Source: Antedon mediterranea | Lineage: Eukaryota; Echinodermata; Crinoidea; Comatulida; Antedonidae | DNA length: 64,000 nt | NCBI RefSeq assembly: GCF_964355755.1 | Contig: NC_092671.1 | Location: 14,738,501 to 14,802,500 of the forward strand | Direction of reading: 5' to 3' | Shown: piece after piece, positions 1 through 49,545 of the stretch | Position numbering within the stretch: the stretch's first letter is position 1 | How the letters are laid out: the number at the start of each line of letters is the position of its first letter | Translations under genes and position numbers: made by a program | Notes under the pieces: model-generated | Database searches by the model: none | Seen by the model: only the letters and a program-made list of their open reading frames with translations | Told to the model about the DNA's origin: nothing

Positions 1-629
1 TCGTGTATTTTATTTAATTTCATTGAAATACATTGTCTATGTGTCGCTAATATACAGATAATGCTCCTTGCGTAATAAGGTGATCTTTTTTTGTAAAATA
101 ATTCTGTAAATACAGTTTTATTGTTACTAATTACTGTAAAAAAAATTGGAATACTAATATGGTTTGTGTGTCGTTTCATTTATTTTATTATAAATCGAGT
201 CAAAACAATCATTAAATGGTTTGAAATTGTATTGTTTTATTTTTTTAAATAGTTTTGCATTTAAGTGGTCTTGGTTTTTGTAATTCATTTTTAACTTGAA
301 AATTGTTGTGAAGTGTGTTGTTTATTTCCTTAAACTGTTTGATTACAAATAAAGTGTTCACAAATAAAATGTCTGTCTTTTTGTAATTAAAAACAATTTT
401 ATAATATGTGAAAATTGTTAAATTTTAGTTGAAAATTCATTCATTGTGTAATGTTGTATTAACTTAAGTAAATGTAAATGAATAGCTGTAAACTGTTTTC
501 TACATCAATAAATGATTATAGAGGACAGCGCTGACTATTAGATTTAAGTAGTTTAGGGTTTAAGTAAGTTAAAATATTACTCATACAAATTTAACTGTAA
601 TTTTAATAATTTGCTGTAATCATTTCAGA
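1..629. other. AT-rich non-coding stretch left of the tandem array
   Basis: No open reading frame, splice-bounded exon or RNA gene was recognised here. The stretch is T- and A-rich and contains scattered AATAAA-like hexamers (for example near 350-370). It runs directly into the polypyrimidine/AG acceptor of the first exon-like block at 630. If that array is genic, this would be its upstream intron or an upstream gene's 3' flank; the window edge cuts off the rest. Confidence 0.4.
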
Positions 630-1232
630 GCACATCTGGATGTACAGATACAAGACTGTCTGAACCAATTACAGGTAAAAAACACCATACAGTATGTACC
701 TATGATTAATTTTAGTTTTTATATTTCTTTTCAGAGCTCACCTATGGATGTACAGATACAAGACTGTTGGAACCAATTACAGGTAAAAAACACCATACAG
801 TATGCCTATGATTAATTTTTGTTTTTATCTTTCCTTTCAGAACACACTTATGAATGTACAGATACAAGACTGTTGGAACCAATTACAGGTAAAAAACACC
901 ATACAGTATGCCTATGATTAATGTGTGTTTTTATATTTCTTTTCAGAGCACACTTATGGATGTACAGATACAAGACTGTTGGAACCAATTACAGGTAAAA
1001 AACACCATACAGTATGCCTATGATTAATGTGTGTTTTTATATTTCTTTTCAGAGCACACCTATGGATGTACAGATACAAGACTGTTGGAACCAATTGCAG
1101 GTAAAAAACACCATACAGTATGCCTATGATTAATGTGTGTTTTTATATTTCTTTTCAGAGCACACCTATGGATGTACAGATGTTGGAACCAATTACAGGT
1201 AAAAAACACCATACAGTATGCCTATGATTAAT

Positions 1233-2451
1233 CAATAGGGTTGGTGAAATTCAGTCCAAAATATGCAGAATTTTTCCAAAATACGTCAAGTTGAGGGCGC
1301 TATACTAATCCAAAATACGCGAGTCTTTCCAAAATACGTCGACTTGGGGGCGCTATTCATTTTCCAAAATACGTGAATTGTCCAAAATACGTCAAGTTGA
1401 GGGCGCTAGTCATTTTCCAAAATACGCAATTTGTCCAAAATACGTCAATTTGGAACCGCTTGTAATTTTCCAAAATACGTCAACTTGAGAGCGCTATTCA
1501 TTTTCCAAAATACGCAATTTAAATAACTCCTTTACTTCTTCTAACCAATTAATTATTGATATTATTTTAATCACAATACCATATGCTTTTTATTATTATA
1601 TATTATATGAAATAATTATTATGTTAGATTTCAGATTAGGTAACTTATTAGACCATAAGTACTGTACATTAAATTGAAAGCGATGTTGGTCTGTCGAGCT
1701 CGGGAAAAATATCGATTTTGTAGATCACCAAATATATAACACATACCTATGACTATACTTAAATACTATATACGTACATGCTGGTTTTGTAGCCGGTTTA
1801 TGCCGCATTTAAACTAGCTACGTCTGGCAATGCAATCGTACATCGTTCAGACATTATTAACGTATATTATAGGCACTGTCTATTGACTGATGTTGGCACA
1901 TATTTGTTGTTTTTCAGTAATAAATGATTACATTGAAAAATAATAATTGGCTACTCTATGACATTTTATTTACAAAAAATTCTGCCTTCTAATACTTTCA
2001 TTTATAACTAAAATGTACTTGTTTGTTTTATTCCAAGAAACTTTTTTTGAATACATTAAACTGTAATTTTACCTTACACTCTCAATATGATACATTTGGA
2101 AAGGCTCTCGTATTTTGGAAAAAAAGTTTGCCGCCCTCAAGTTGACGTATTTTGGAAAATTACTAGCCGTCCCAAATTGCAAATTGACGTATTTTGGACA
2201 AATCGCGTATTTTGGAAATAAATAGCGCCCTCAATTTGACGTATTTTGGACAATTCATGTATTTGGGATGATTTATAGCGCCCTCAACTTGACGTATTTT
2301 GGACAATTCACGTATTTTGGAAAATGAATAGGGCCCTCAAGTCGACGTATTTTGGAAAGACTCGCGTATTTTGGATTAGTATAGCGCCCTCAACTTGACG
2401 TATTTTGGAAAAAATTCTGCGTATTTTGGACTGATGTTCACCAACCCGACA
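1233..2451. mobile_element. Foldback/MULE-like non-autonomous DNA transposon with 9-bp TSD
   Basis: A 1,219-bp insertion in the intron-like part of one array unit. It is flanked by the direct duplication ATGATTAAT (1224-1232 and 2452-2460), which is array sequence. Its two ends are inverted copies of each other over roughly 290-350 bp. These arms are built from short subrepeats containing CCAAAATACGTCAA and GGGCGCTA, alternating in spacing. The centre (about 1520-2090) is AT-rich without a reading frame. Long subrepeat-rich inverted arms with a 9-bp duplication are typical of Mutator-like or foldback elements. No transposase is present, so it must have been mobilised in trans. Confidence 0.85.
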
Positions 2452-2670
2452 ATGATTAATGTGTGTTTTTATATTTCTTTTCAGAGCTCACCTATGGATG
2501 TACAGATACAAGACTGTTGGAACCAATCACTGGTAAAAAACACCATACAGTATGTACCTATGATTAATGTGTGTTTTTATCTTTCTTTTCAGAGCTCACC
2601 TATGGATGTACAGATACAAGACTGTTGGAACCAATCACAGGTAAAAAACACCATACAGTATGCCTATGAT

Positions 2671-4368
2671 TAATGTGTGTTTTTATATTTCTTTTCACAG
2701 AACACCTATGGATGTACAGATACAAGACTGTTGGAACCAATCACAGGTAAAAAACACCATACAGTATGCCTATGATTAATGTGTGTTTTTATATTTCTTT
2801 TCACAGAACACCTATGGATGTACAGATACAAGACTGTTGGAACCAATTACAGGTAAAAAACACCATACAGTATGCCTATGATTAATGTGTGTTTTTATCT
2901 TTCTTTTCAGAGCACACCTATGGATGTACAGATACAAGACTGTTGGAACCGATCACAGGTAAAAACACCATACAGTATGCCTATGATTAATGTGTGTTTT
3001 TATATTTCTTTTCAGAGCACACCTATGGATGTACAGATACAAGACTGTTGGAACCGATCACAGGTAAAAAACACCATACAGTATGCCTATGATTAATGTG
3101 TGTTTTTATATTTCTTTTCAGAGCACACCTATGGATGTACAGATACAAGACTGTTGGAACCGATCACAGGTAAAAAACACCATACAGTATGCCTATGATT
3201 AATGTGTGTTTTTATATTTCTTTTCAGAGCACACCTATGGATGTACAGATACAAGACTGTTGGAACCGATCACAGGTAAAAAACACCATACAGTATGCCT
3301 ATGATTAATGTGTGTTTTTATATTTCTTTTCAGAGCACACCTATGGATGTACAGATACAAGACTGTTGGAACCGATCACAGGTAAAAACACCATACAGTA
3401 TGCCTATGATTAATGTGTGTTTTTATATTTCTTTTCAGAGCACACCTATGGATGTACAGATACAAGACTGTTGGAACCAATTACAGGTAAAAAAAAACAC
3501 CATACAGTATGCCTATGATTAATGTGTGTTTTTATATTTCTTTTCACAGAACACCTATGGATGTACAGATACAAGACTGTTGGAACCAATCACAGGTAAA
3601 AAACACCATACAGTATGCCTATGATTAATGTGTGTTTTTATATTTCTTTTCACAGAACACCTATGGATGTACAGATACAAGACTGTTGGAACCAATTACA
3701 GGTAAAAAACACCATACAGTATGCCTATGATTAATGTGTGTTTTTATCTTTCTTTTCAGAGCACACCTATGGATGTACAGATACAAGACTGTTGGAACCG
3801 ATCACAGGTAAAAACACCATACAGTATGCCTATGATTAATGTGTGTTTTTATATTTCTTTTCAGAGCACACCTATGGATGTACAGATACAAGACTGTTGG
3901 AACCGATCACAGGTAAAAAACACCATACAGTATGCCTATGATTAATGTGTGTTTTTATATTTCTTTTCAGAGCACACCTATGGATGTACAGATACAAGAC
4001 TGTTGGAACCGATCACAGGTAAAAAACACCATACAGTATGCCTATGATTAATGTGTGTTTTTATATTTCTTTTCAGAGCACACCTATGGATGTACAGATA
4101 CAAGACTGTTGGAACCGATCACAGGTAAAAAACACCATACAGTATGCCTATGATTAATGTGTGTTTTTATATTTCTTTTCAGAGCACACCTATGGATGTA
4201 CAGATACAAGACTGTTGGAACCGATCACAGGTAAAAACACCATACAGTATGCCTATGATTAATGTGTGTTTTTATATTTCTTTTCAGAGCACACCTATGG
4301 ATGTACAGATACAAGACTGTTGGAACCGATTACAGGTAAAAACACCATACAGTATGTACCTATGATTA
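2671..4368 (+). repeat. Higher-order repeat: two 849-bp blocks of eight array units
   Basis: Within the microexon-like array, the segment beginning at 2671 recurs almost unchanged from 3520. The offset is 849 bp, that is eight units. Both blocks start with two adjacent units that carry the variant TTCACAG acceptor, followed by a unit with TTTATCTTTC in its pyrimidine tract and then GATCACAG-ending units. A related block appears to begin again near 4462. This indicates recent segmental expansion by unequal exchange of multi-unit blocks. Confidence 0.7.
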
Positions 4369-6025
4369 ATGTGTGTTTTTATATTTCTTTTCAGAGCACA
4401 CCTATGGATGTACAGATACAAGACTGTTGGAACCAATTACAGGTAAAAAACACCATACAGTATGCCTATGATTAATGTGTGTTTTTATCTTTCTTTTCAG
4501 AGCACACCTATGGATGTACAGATACAAGACTGTTGGAACCGATCACAGGTAAAAACACCATACAGTATGCCTATGATTAATGTGTGTTTTTATATTTCTT
4601 TTCAGAGCACACCTATGGATGTACAGATACAAGACTGTTGGAACCGATCACAGGTAAAAAACACCATACAGTATGCCTATGATTAATGTGTGTTTTTATA
4701 TTTCTTTTCAGAGCACACCTATGGATGTACAGATACAAGATTGTTGGAACCAATTACAGGTAAAAAACACCATACAGTATGCCTATGATTAATGTGTGTT
4801 TTTATATTTCTTTTCAGAGCACACCTATGGATGTACAGATACAAGACTGTTGGAACCGATCACAGGTAAAAAACACCATACAGTATGCCTATGATTAATG
4901 TGTGTTTTTATATTTCTTTTCAGAGCACACCTATGGATGTACAGATACAAGACTGTTGGAACCAATCACAGGTAAAAAACACCATACAGTATGCCTATGA
5001 TTAATGTGTGTTTTTATATTTCTTTTCAGAGCACACCTATGGATGTACAGATACAAGACTGTTGGAACCGATCACAGGTAAAAAACACCATACAGTATGC
5101 CTATGATTAATGTGTGTTTTTATATTTCTTTTCAGAGCACACCTATGGATGTACAGATACAAGACTGTTGGAACCGATCACAGGTAAAAAACACCATACA
5201 GTATGCCTATGATTAATGTGTGTTTTTATATTTCTTTTCAGAGCACACCTATGGATGTACAGATACAAGACTGTTGGAACCAATCACAGGTAAAAAACAC
5301 CATACAGTATGCCTATGATTAATGTGTGTTTTTATATTTCTTTTCAGAGCACACCTATGGATGTACAGATACAAGACTGTTGGAACCGATCACAGGTAAA
5401 AAACACCATACAGTATGCCTATGATTAATGTGTGTTTTTATATTTCTTTTCAGAGCACACCTATGGATGTACAGATACAAGACTGTTGGAACCGATCACA
5501 GGTAAAAACACCATACAGTATGCCTATGATTAATGTGTGTTTTTATATTTCTTTTCAGAGCACACCTGTGGATGTACAGATACAAGACTGTTGGAACCGA
5601 TCACAGGTAAAAAACACCATACAGTATGCCTATGATTAATGTGTGTTTTTATATTTCTTTTCACAGAACACCTATGGATGTACAGATACAAGACTGTTGG
5701 AACCGATCACAGGTAAAAACACCATACAGTATGCCTATGATTAATGTGTGTTTTTATCTTTCTTTTCAGAGCACACCTATGGATGTACAGATACAAGACT
5801 GTTGGAACCGATCACAGGTAAAAAACACCATACAGTATGCCTATGATTAATGTGTGTTTTTATCTTTCTTTTCAGAGCACACCTATGGATGTACAGATAC
5901 AAGACTGTTGGAACCGATCACAGGTAAAAACACCATACAGTATGTAGCTGTGGTTAATTCTTTTTATCTTTCTTTTTAGAACACACCTATATAGAGATAA
6001 TAGACTTTTGGAACCAATCACATGT

Positions 6026-6830
6026 AAAAACACAAATTATGTACCTATGAGTAAGACTAACCATATTATCACATGTACCATTAACTATTTATGACCATTA
6101 CTCTGTTCAGTTGTTGCTAATAAAGAATACCATAATGGTGGGATACTGTGAACAAATTAAAGCTAGCTACGTACTGGTACATTAAACATATTCGAATCTC
6201 ATATCTGTAATAATAATATTTATGAATGTAAATGACAAGAATAGATACAGTATTAAGAATAATACTACCAGGTACCATGTTGTTATTGTATATTTGCAAG
6301 ATCGATCGATTTTGCTAGTGGAGAAACATCCAAGAATTGCCAAAGGTAGAGTTTGTCAGTTGCAAAGAAATTGGTCTAAAAAACACATTTTTCGTACAAA
6401 TTTGCCATTCTAATATAGACTATTATGGATAAAGGAGAACTAGTATAAGACTTATGGTTTAGGAGGAGATAGAGGAACAAATTTTGGCTTAATGCTATTG
6501 TAATATAGATTAACCAAAATGATACCAAGGTAATTCATAAAATAGTATTGTATTGTATATTTCTAGTATTTACTGACATATTTAGAATATTTACCTACAG
6601 TAGCCATACTACTAATTGTCGCCGATACTTGAAAAGAAAACAATTATGTATTTCAATTATTTAAATATTCATTAGGTTATCTAGGTAATGAATGAATGAA
6701 TTTGATAACTTATATATAGTTAGCATTCCTCAACAAAAGAGCATATAAAGGTTATTTTTACATTATTTATTGTTAACTTTTTTTAAAACTCTTTAAAAAG
6801 TTCAAATATCTAAATTATAGAGGGCGGTGT
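6026..6830. other. Intergenic stretch between the array and TPCN2
   Basis: About 0.8 kb of AT-rich sequence separating the last decayed array unit from the TPCN2 promoter region. Short open frames on both strands (for example a 63-codon one at 6222-6413) have no recognisable similarity and no convincing splice context. I see no clear terminal exon for the array here. Confidence 0.4.
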
Positions 6831-6971: not shown

Positions 6972-31755
<24,784 letters not shown>

Positions 31756-48600: not shown

Positions 48601-49545
48601 AAGAGCATTTCATACGGGTAAATATTCCCTCCCCCAACCAATCACCCAGATCATTTCATACTGGTACATTCCCCCTCCCCAATCGAATCATTTAATACTT
48701 ACTTGTATATATTCCCCTCTAACCCCTCCCCCCCCCCAACCAATCAACATGATCATATCATACTGGTACATTCTGCCTCCCAATCAAATCATTACATACG
48801 GGTATGTATTTCCCCCTTTGCCAATCAAGCAGAGCATTTCATACGGGTACATATTCCCTTCAACCCCTTCCCCAACCAATCAACCAGATCATTTCATACT
48901 GGTACATTCTGCCTCCCCCCCCCCCCCCCAATCAAATCATTACACACAGGTATATATTTCCCCCTTTGCCAATCAAGCAGAGCATTTCATACGGGTACAT
49001 ATTCCCTCCAAGCCCTCCCGCCAACCATTCAACCAGATCATTTCATACTGGTACATTCTGCCTCCCCCCCCCCCCCCAATCAAATCATTACATACAGGTA
49101 TATATTTCCCCCTTTGCCAATCAAGCAGAGCATTTCATACGGGTACATATTCCCTCCAAGCCCTCCCGCCAACCAATCAACCAGATCATTTCATACTGAT
49201 ACATTATGCCTCACACCTCCCCCCCCCCCCCCCAATCAAATCATTACATACAGGTATATATTTCCCACTTTGCCAATCAAGCAGAGCATTTCATACAGGT
49301 ACATATTCCCTCCAACCCCTCCTGCCAACCATTCAACCAGATCATTTCATACTGGTACATTATGCCCCACCCCCCAATCAAATCATTACATACAGGTATA
49401 TATTTCCCCCTTTGCCAATCAAGCAGAGCATTTCATACGGGTACATATTCCCTCCAATCCCTTCCGCCAACCAATCAACCATATCATTTCATACTGGTAC
49501 ATCCCCCCAATCAAATCATACAGGTTTATATTTCCCCATTTCCTA
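48601..49545. repeat. C-rich ~148-bp minisatellite
   Basis: Five to six units of about 133-156 bp, each starting CAATCAAATCATTACATAC. Each is itself made of three related segments of about 50 bp around AGATCATTTCATAC(T/G)GGTACAT. Runs of 7-16 C separate them and account for most length variation. The first ~180 bp are degenerate units. The lack of stops in the + strand gives overlapping Pro-rich open frames (up to 333 codons) in all three frames, which is expected from a stop-free repeat and is not taken as coding. Confidence 0.9.

What the first reader, a model, noticed from the sequence alone, without database searches (positions are those of the whole stretch)
630..6025. About 40 tandem 48-nt microexon-like units with intact splice signals and frame-specific silent variation
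Seen: each unit has acceptor, 48-nt block, donor and branch-point-like motif, and the block is symmetric (phase 1-1, 16 codons). Recurrent substitutions (CCA/CCG, ATT/ATC, ACC/ACT, CTG/TTG, ACA/ACT) are silent in the frame reading EHTYGCTDTRLLEPIT but not in the other two open frames; A-run length changes sit in the intron-like part. Inference: a repetitive Cys-containing protein region of up to ~640 residues made from minimal (58-nt) introns and microexons, with potential for enormous splice variety, or its recent relic. I do not know a described family with this peptide.
Basis: partly seen in the sequence, partly recalled or inferred. Interest (0 to 1): 0.9.

Follow-up and report, generated by a model that had tools for sequence, protein, structure and literature searches.

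The report
Spliced-RNA gene family of tandem microexons
The repeat is probably not a long repetitive protein but part of a small family of apparently non-coding animal genes, each with a conserved start followed by tens to hundreds of tiny exon-like units whose splice signals are kept while their contents drift.

Summary
But only 32 of 40 blocks are 48 nt, so the frame shifts repeatedly, and the silent-site excess is weak (6 of 10; p=0.029, uncorrected for three frames).

Context changes the reading. Related arrays were read at four C11 places and one C9 place (354 unit hits in three of them). These five and the window array lie downstream of one promoter/exon-1 block (CCAAT boxes, AG|GTA(A/G)GT donor), which has 10 genome matches plus the window's own copy; two other copies read have no units within ~6 kb. 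C11 microexons are mostly 41 nt, spliced chains hold stops in every frame and no codon periodicity appears; C9 has 96-nt exons with stops in all frames. Over 214 distinct C11 units splice sites vary 1.6%, exon interiors 9.3%; pyrimidine-tract changes favour pyrimidines. In C9 this signal is weaker.

Best reading: a family of spliced non-coding RNA genes built of tandem microexons, Firre-like in plan but more extreme. No RNA data were available: transcription, splicing and function are inferred.

The parts
629..1232 (+). Microexon-like units 1-6 of the array; unit 1 block 629-674 (46 nt), unit 6 block 40 nt
1233..2451 (.). Inserted inverted-repeat element between units 6 and 7 (inside an intron-like part); ends CAATAGGGTTGGTGAA / TGTCGGGTTGGTGAA, target-site duplication ATGATTAAT at 1224-1232 and 2452-2460
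2452..6023 (+). Microexon-like units 7-40; 34 blocks of 44-48 nt with AG before and GT behind
5980..6023 (+). Last, degenerate unit (44 nt block, acceptor TTTTTAG, donor CAT|GTAAAA)

Best explanation
The array is the microexon part of one copy of a small family of spliced, apparently non-coding RNA genes. A promoter block with CCAAT-type boxes and a short exon 1 lies about 4.4 kb upstream of the array, outside the window (C2:14734537-14734750, same strand). The primary transcript would run through 5' exons and then through tens to hundreds of tandem exons, mostly 41-48 nt, separated by introns of about 58-62 nt. Shown: the anatomy, the paralogy of the gene starts, lower variation at splice signals than elsewhere in C11 units, no sign of coding constraint in the paralogs. 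Inferred: that it is transcribed and spliced, and that the many-exon RNA acts as a multivalent nuclear RNA (repeated exon ends and 5' splice sites as binding platform, in the manner of Firre) rather than through a protein.
For: Same promoter/exon-1 block upstream of the window array (nhmmer E 4.5e-9; alignment) and at 10 genome places; 8 read promoters align and all 8 keep AG|GTA(A/G)GT at the exon-1 donor; 6 of the 8 read loci have unit arrays downstream on the same strand. In 214 distinct C11 units (of 354 hits) AG and GT are each intact in 208, median dinucleotide 88%; splice-site mask varies 1.6% against 6.3% overall and 9.3% in exon interiors, same order in each of three clusters. Pyrimidine-tract changes go to pyrimidines in 121 of 185 against 131 of 409 at other pyrimidine sites. 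C9 array holds AGGTAAG 15 times against a mononucleotide-shuffle mean of 0.28. No codon periodicity; stops in every frame of C11 chains; C9 96-nt exons with stops in all three frames (read from the sequence).
Against: No RNA evidence at all. Units are homogenised copies, so counts are not independent; rotating the splice mask gives 4 of 102 positions as low (8 of 102 in C11 cluster a). The last 12 exon bases are as constant as the splice site itself (1.3%), which splicing alone does not demand. In C9 the signal is weak: AG and GT intact in 21 of 27 units each against a median of 67%. Two of 8 read promoter copies have no unit within about 6 kb. AATAAA signals stand before the array in C11 copies and, in number, between exon 2 and the window array (by eye), so transcripts might end before the arrays. 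A 456-residue stop-free run exists in one frame of the C11a chain (shuffled-order median 280, range 184-585).
Confidence: 0.62

Rival explanations
1. Neutral relic: an exon plus short introns of a once-spliced locus was amplified by unequal crossing-over; the arrays now are untranscribed or irrelevant minisatellites whose splice signals persist because the arrays are young.
For: High homogeneity of the window array (97% match); unit 6 and the last unit are damaged; splice signals in C9 are lost in 6 of 27 units at either site; two promoter copies without arrays.
Against: C11 units differ from each other and still keep splice sites and pyrimidine tract more than the rest; arrays keep position and strand behind a conserved promoter in 6 read loci.
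Confidence: 0.22
2. Coding array: the window copy encodes a Cys-containing 16-residue repeat protein from 48-nt symmetric microexons.
For: 32 of 40 blocks are 48 nt; 6 of 10 variable sites are silent in that frame; several C9 exons are also 48 nt.
Against: Eight of 40 blocks break the frame; paralogs have 41-nt blocks with stops and no codon periodicity; C9 has all-frame stops; one unconvincing hit among predicted proteins.
Confidence: 0.07
3. DNA-level element: the constant 20-mer AACCAATCACAGGTAAGAAA is a protein-binding site (CCAAT box) and the splice resemblance is incidental.
For: That 20-mer is the most constant part of the C11 unit; CCAATCACAG also occurs in the promoter block.
Against: In the window array the consensus reads CCGATC, with A restored in only 11 of the 32 blocks of 48 nt, so the CCAAT box is mostly absent; a TTTTCAG box and a pyrimidine tract upstream of the block are kept as well.
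Confidence: 0.05

Closest known systems
Firre long non-coding RNA of mammals (RRD exon repeat; passages of PMC4820808 and PMC7734150 seen)
   Same: A locus with local tandem repeats in which one repeat type makes many exons (RRD: 7 of 13 human, 11 of 23 mouse exons) and others lie in introns; lncRNA.
   Different: Exons here are about 41-48 nt against a 156-bp RRD, and number 40 to about 170 per locus; the family has several dispersed copies with one promoter; expression, nuclear location and hnRNPU binding unknown here.
Micro-exon genes (MEGs) of schistosomes (recalled; only a search listing seen)
   Same: Many very short exons in a row.
   Different: MEGs (recalled) encode secreted proteins from exons in multiples of three; here blocks break the frame and paralogs carry stops.
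Minisatellite / satellite DNA
   Same: Head-to-tail units with local homogenisation and higher-order periods.
   Different: Arrays sit behind a conserved promoter on the same strand, and splice signals vary less than the rest.

Membership tests
Protein-coding microexon gene | Exon lengths in multiples of three, one open frame through the chain | tested here: not met
   8 of 40 window blocks are not 48 nt; C11 blocks 41 nt in 285 of 330
Protein-coding microexon gene | Excess of silent changes / third-position variation | tested here: inconclusive
   Window array 6 of 10 silent, p=0.029 uncorrected; C11 paralogs show no periodicity in any frame
Protein-coding microexon gene | Homologous proteins known | tested here: not met
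   One unconvincing hit, 8000 candidates scored
Spliced long non-coding RNA gene with exon repeats (Firre-like plan) | Tandem repeat units coincide with exons, splice signals kept | tested here: met
   By sequence only; not by RNA
Spliced long non-coding RNA gene with exon repeats (Firre-like plan) | Own promoter upstream on the same strand | tested here: met
   By homology and motif content only (names of motifs recalled):
Spliced long non-coding RNA gene with exon repeats (Firre-like plan) | Transcribed, spliced and retained in the nucleus | not testable with these tools
   No RNA data
Firre itself (orthology) | RRD sequence homology / synteny | not tested
   Resemblance of plan only
Dispersed satellite DNA | Same unit at many unrelated places | tested here: not met
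   Window-unit search: 39 window and 54 C11 matches; C11-unit search: 389 matches, the listed ones all on C11 (list and candidates capped)
HDV-like ribozyme (end motif of C11 loci, side issue) | Nested double-pseudoknot plan P1-P2-P3-P4 (scheme recalled) | tested here: inconclusive
   Drawn by eye on two contexts; the plain MFE fold of the 104-nt stretch is another hairpin, -29.1 kcal/mol
HDV-like ribozyme (end motif of C11 loci, side issue) | Match to Rfam HDV models | tested here: not met
   No HDV match at E<=1 or E<=10
HDV-like ribozyme (end motif of C11 loci, side issue) | Self-cleavage | not testable with these tools
   Needs a bench assay

The most novel reading that the evidence does not exclude
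A family of RNA genes in which selection acts mainly on being spliced: arrays of up to about 170 microexons keep 3' and 5' splice signals while exon interiors drift, so that the RNA would bind or titrate splicing factors (U1, U2AF) many times over, or be held on chromatin through them. In three C11 copies the homologous region ends in a 77-nt motif that can be drawn like an HDV-type self-cleaving ribozyme and is shared with a young dispersed element; it could make the 3' end without polyadenylation.
Probability: 0.22. Interest if true: 0.9.

Novelty: new variant of a known kind. Interest (0 to 1): 0.66.

Why it matters
If transcribed, these would be unusually exon-dense genes and a natural test of what a non-coding RNA needs to keep: the six arrays read share a promoter and splice signals but differ in unit length, copy number and exon sequence. 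One could ask directly whether splice sites themselves can be the working content of a long non-coding RNA, and how tandem microexon arrays arise and are homogenised.

Tried and rejected
Rejected: protein repeat and DNA-only element (see rivals). Rejected: dispersed satellite (capped lists). Rejected: mobile element with clean ends for the C11 loci: upstream homology fades in patches, although the downstream end is sharp. Known RNA family: Rfam gave no match to the window array at gathering or E<=1, and for the C11 and upstream stretches only matches below gathering scores; the end motif matched nothing informative. Viral-contig scan with the end-motif core: one exact 17-mer match, which I take for chance (my own estimate, not a computed control). 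Paper searches listed no description of such an array among the rows shown; only 12 of 102 and only 8 of 36 were listed. Organism: not identified; a search of papers by assembly size found nothing. Neighbours are named from weak matches: TPC-like downstream (PDB TPC2 E 0.014; Ion_trans E 1.6e-4, below Pfam's cut-off); Ras-type exon upstream in L009 (E 0.0058, below cut-off; the name Rab21 is recall). Failed scripts: time-out; no result for want of a format flag; repaired.

Dropped rows: one search left out 22 of 354 C11 hits with 25 or more gaps and collapsed the other 332 to 214; one search left out hits without both sites (19 of 116, 14 of 180, 4 of 71 on C11, some of them stray matches outside the arrays, and 1 of 41 on C2); one search left 7 of 43 gapped hits out of its variation figures, and its exon caller mis-set two acceptors (two 60-nt calls are 47-nt blocks by eye).

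Full report
What is there. At 623-1232 and 2452-6030 lies one array of 106-bp units, split by an inverted-repeat insertion at 1233-2451 with a 9-bp duplication. Forty units carry a pyrimidine tract, an AG, a short block and GT. The blocks are 48 nt in 32 units, 46 in six, 44 and 40 in one each.

Relatives in the genome. A search with one unit found 39 matches in the window array and 54 diverged ones in three clusters on C11. Profile search of the fetched stretches counts 113, 173 and 68 units in the three clusters and 40 in the window. The C11 unit is about 103 bp with a 41-nt block (285 of 330 blocks with both sites called). Consensus blocks of window and C11 match at 36 of 41 aligned positions (with a 7-nt gap), introns at 44 of 55. 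The C11 arrays alternate with arrays of 102- and 157-bp units of a second repeat type that also has exon-like edges.

A shared gene start. The three C11 clusters share about 2 kb upstream, with two stretches of 93-99% three-way identity in 80-column steps: one with CACGTG and CCAAT boxes ahead of exon 1, one with TGACGTCA and GCGGGAAA (what such motifs bind is recalled). A profile of this region finds the same block upstream of the window array at L010:6037-6250 (C2:14734537-14734750), same strand, E 4.5e-9, and far below threshold (E 3.5) an exon-2-like acceptor (alignment). A genome search with 521 bp of it gives 10 matches on C11, C9 and C2, one of them the query itself; the window's own copy is not among them. 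Four more copies were read. C9:24112 kb has the promoter, homology through exons 1-3, 33 unit hits and 144-bp units of the second type. C11:18395 kb has the promoter and 10 units. C11:994 kb and C2:14607 kb have the promoter but no unit in the roughly 6 kb read downstream. Eight promoters align, with AG|GTA(A/G)GT at the exon-1 donor in all eight. Three copies could not be read.

What seems to be kept. Over 214 distinct C11 units (from 332 of 354 hits), AG and GT are each intact in 208, while the median dinucleotide is unchanged in 88%. The splice-site mask varies 1.6%, the whole unit 6.3%, exon interior 9.3%, intron interior 6.9%; each cluster alone shows the mask lowest of these. The last 12 exon bases vary 1.3%. 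Changes in the pyrimidine tract go to pyrimidines 121 of 185 times, at other pyrimidine sites 131 of 409. These counts are not independent, since units are homogenised, and rotating the mask gives 4 of 102 positions as low (8 of 102 in cluster a). In C9, AG and GT are intact in 21 of 27 units each against a median of 67%; in C11:18395 kb 10 and 9 of 10 against 80%.

Probably not a protein. No codon periodicity appears in any C11 frame. The in-silico spliced C11 chains hold 15 to 46 stops per frame, though one frame of the first cluster has a stop-free run of 456 residues. Of 104 distinct 41-nt blocks, 35, 25 and 11 carry a stop in the three frames. C9 has 96-nt exons with stops in all three frames (read from the sequence). 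The protein search with the 16-mer repeat gave one hit, a different repeat sharing a short word.

Mechanism. The best-supported account is a gene of non-coding type whose transcript is spliced through tens to hundreds of microexons. Transcription is inferred from promoter and splice-site conservation; what the RNA does is a guess: the repeated exon end with its 5' splice site may be a multivalent binding platform. The closest documented plan that I found is Firre, where one local repeat makes 7 of 13 human and 11 of 23 mouse exons and acts as a nuclear-localisation signal (PMC4820808, passages). It works like Firre on this reading; that it is Firre's relative is not claimed.

A loose end. The three C11 loci end in 128 bp identical in all three while the DNA behind it differs. 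Seventy-seven nt of it recur in a young dispersed element: its 19-nt core has 32 exact genome copies including the three; all 10 further copies that were fetched (of 29) belong to the element, which carries an OTU-protease domain (PF02338, E 2.9e-11). Helices can be drawn in the order of an HDV-like ribozyme, with a P4 hairpin differing in letters between the two contexts. Rfam does not match it and the plain fold prefers a hairpin that hides the GTAAG. It is a lead only; the window holds no such motif (a 13-nt pattern with up to two mismatches).

Limits. No RNA data, no related genome, organism unnamed, genome searches mostly unanswered and capped. On re-checking, the confidence of the main reading was set at 0.62 because the C9 signal is weak and two promoter copies lack units.

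Noticed in passing
L012 580-707 (minus); same in L014 and L020; L026 around 1490-1580: 128 bp identical at the downstream end of three C11 loci; 77 nt of it, drawable as an HDV-like double pseudoknot, recur in a young dispersed element.
   Followed up: partly
L025-L034: Young dispersed element, 10 of 10 fetched copies 95-99% alike over 1.9-3 kb, with an OTU-protease domain (PF02338) and tRNA-like pieces (tRNA by eye).
   Followed up: partly
window 1233-2451: Inverted-repeat element with 53-bp sub-repeats in its ends, inserted in the array; 9-bp target-site duplication.
   Followed up: partly
L012, L013, L015-L017, L020, L021, L045: Second repeat type (102, 144 and 157 bp units) with the core TGTAGCTAAG..AGGTTTAAGTT and CTGCAG|GT junctions, interleaved with the microexon arrays.
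   Followed up: partly
C11:1736732-1760292 (L015-L017): Arrays at 1738633/1750134 and 1741463/1752964 lie 11501 bp apart, those at 1745466/1756671 and 1747591/1758796 lie 11205 bp apart: an internal duplication.
   Followed up: no
L010 about 8160-10000 and window 1-400: Series of AATAAA-containing, GT-rich modules, partly a ~170-bp tandem repeat, and inverted repeats CACAGTTCATGTGAGCAG../..TGTGAACTGTG between exon 2 and the window array.
   Followed up: no
window 6972 onward; 22490-22650: Plus-strand gene start 0.9 kb behind the array and, further on, an exon resembling two-pore channels (weak scores).
   Followed up: partly
window 24118-24227: 5S rRNA-like match, Rfam RF00001, 51.5 bits.
   Followed up: no
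window 21427-21867 and 48779-49502: Further tandem arrays: 37-bp unit x 12 and 148-bp unit x 4.9.
   Followed up: no
L019 8815-9132 (minus): Exon resembling COX5A (recalled, not searched) 1.6 kb behind the end of the third C11 locus.
   Followed up: no
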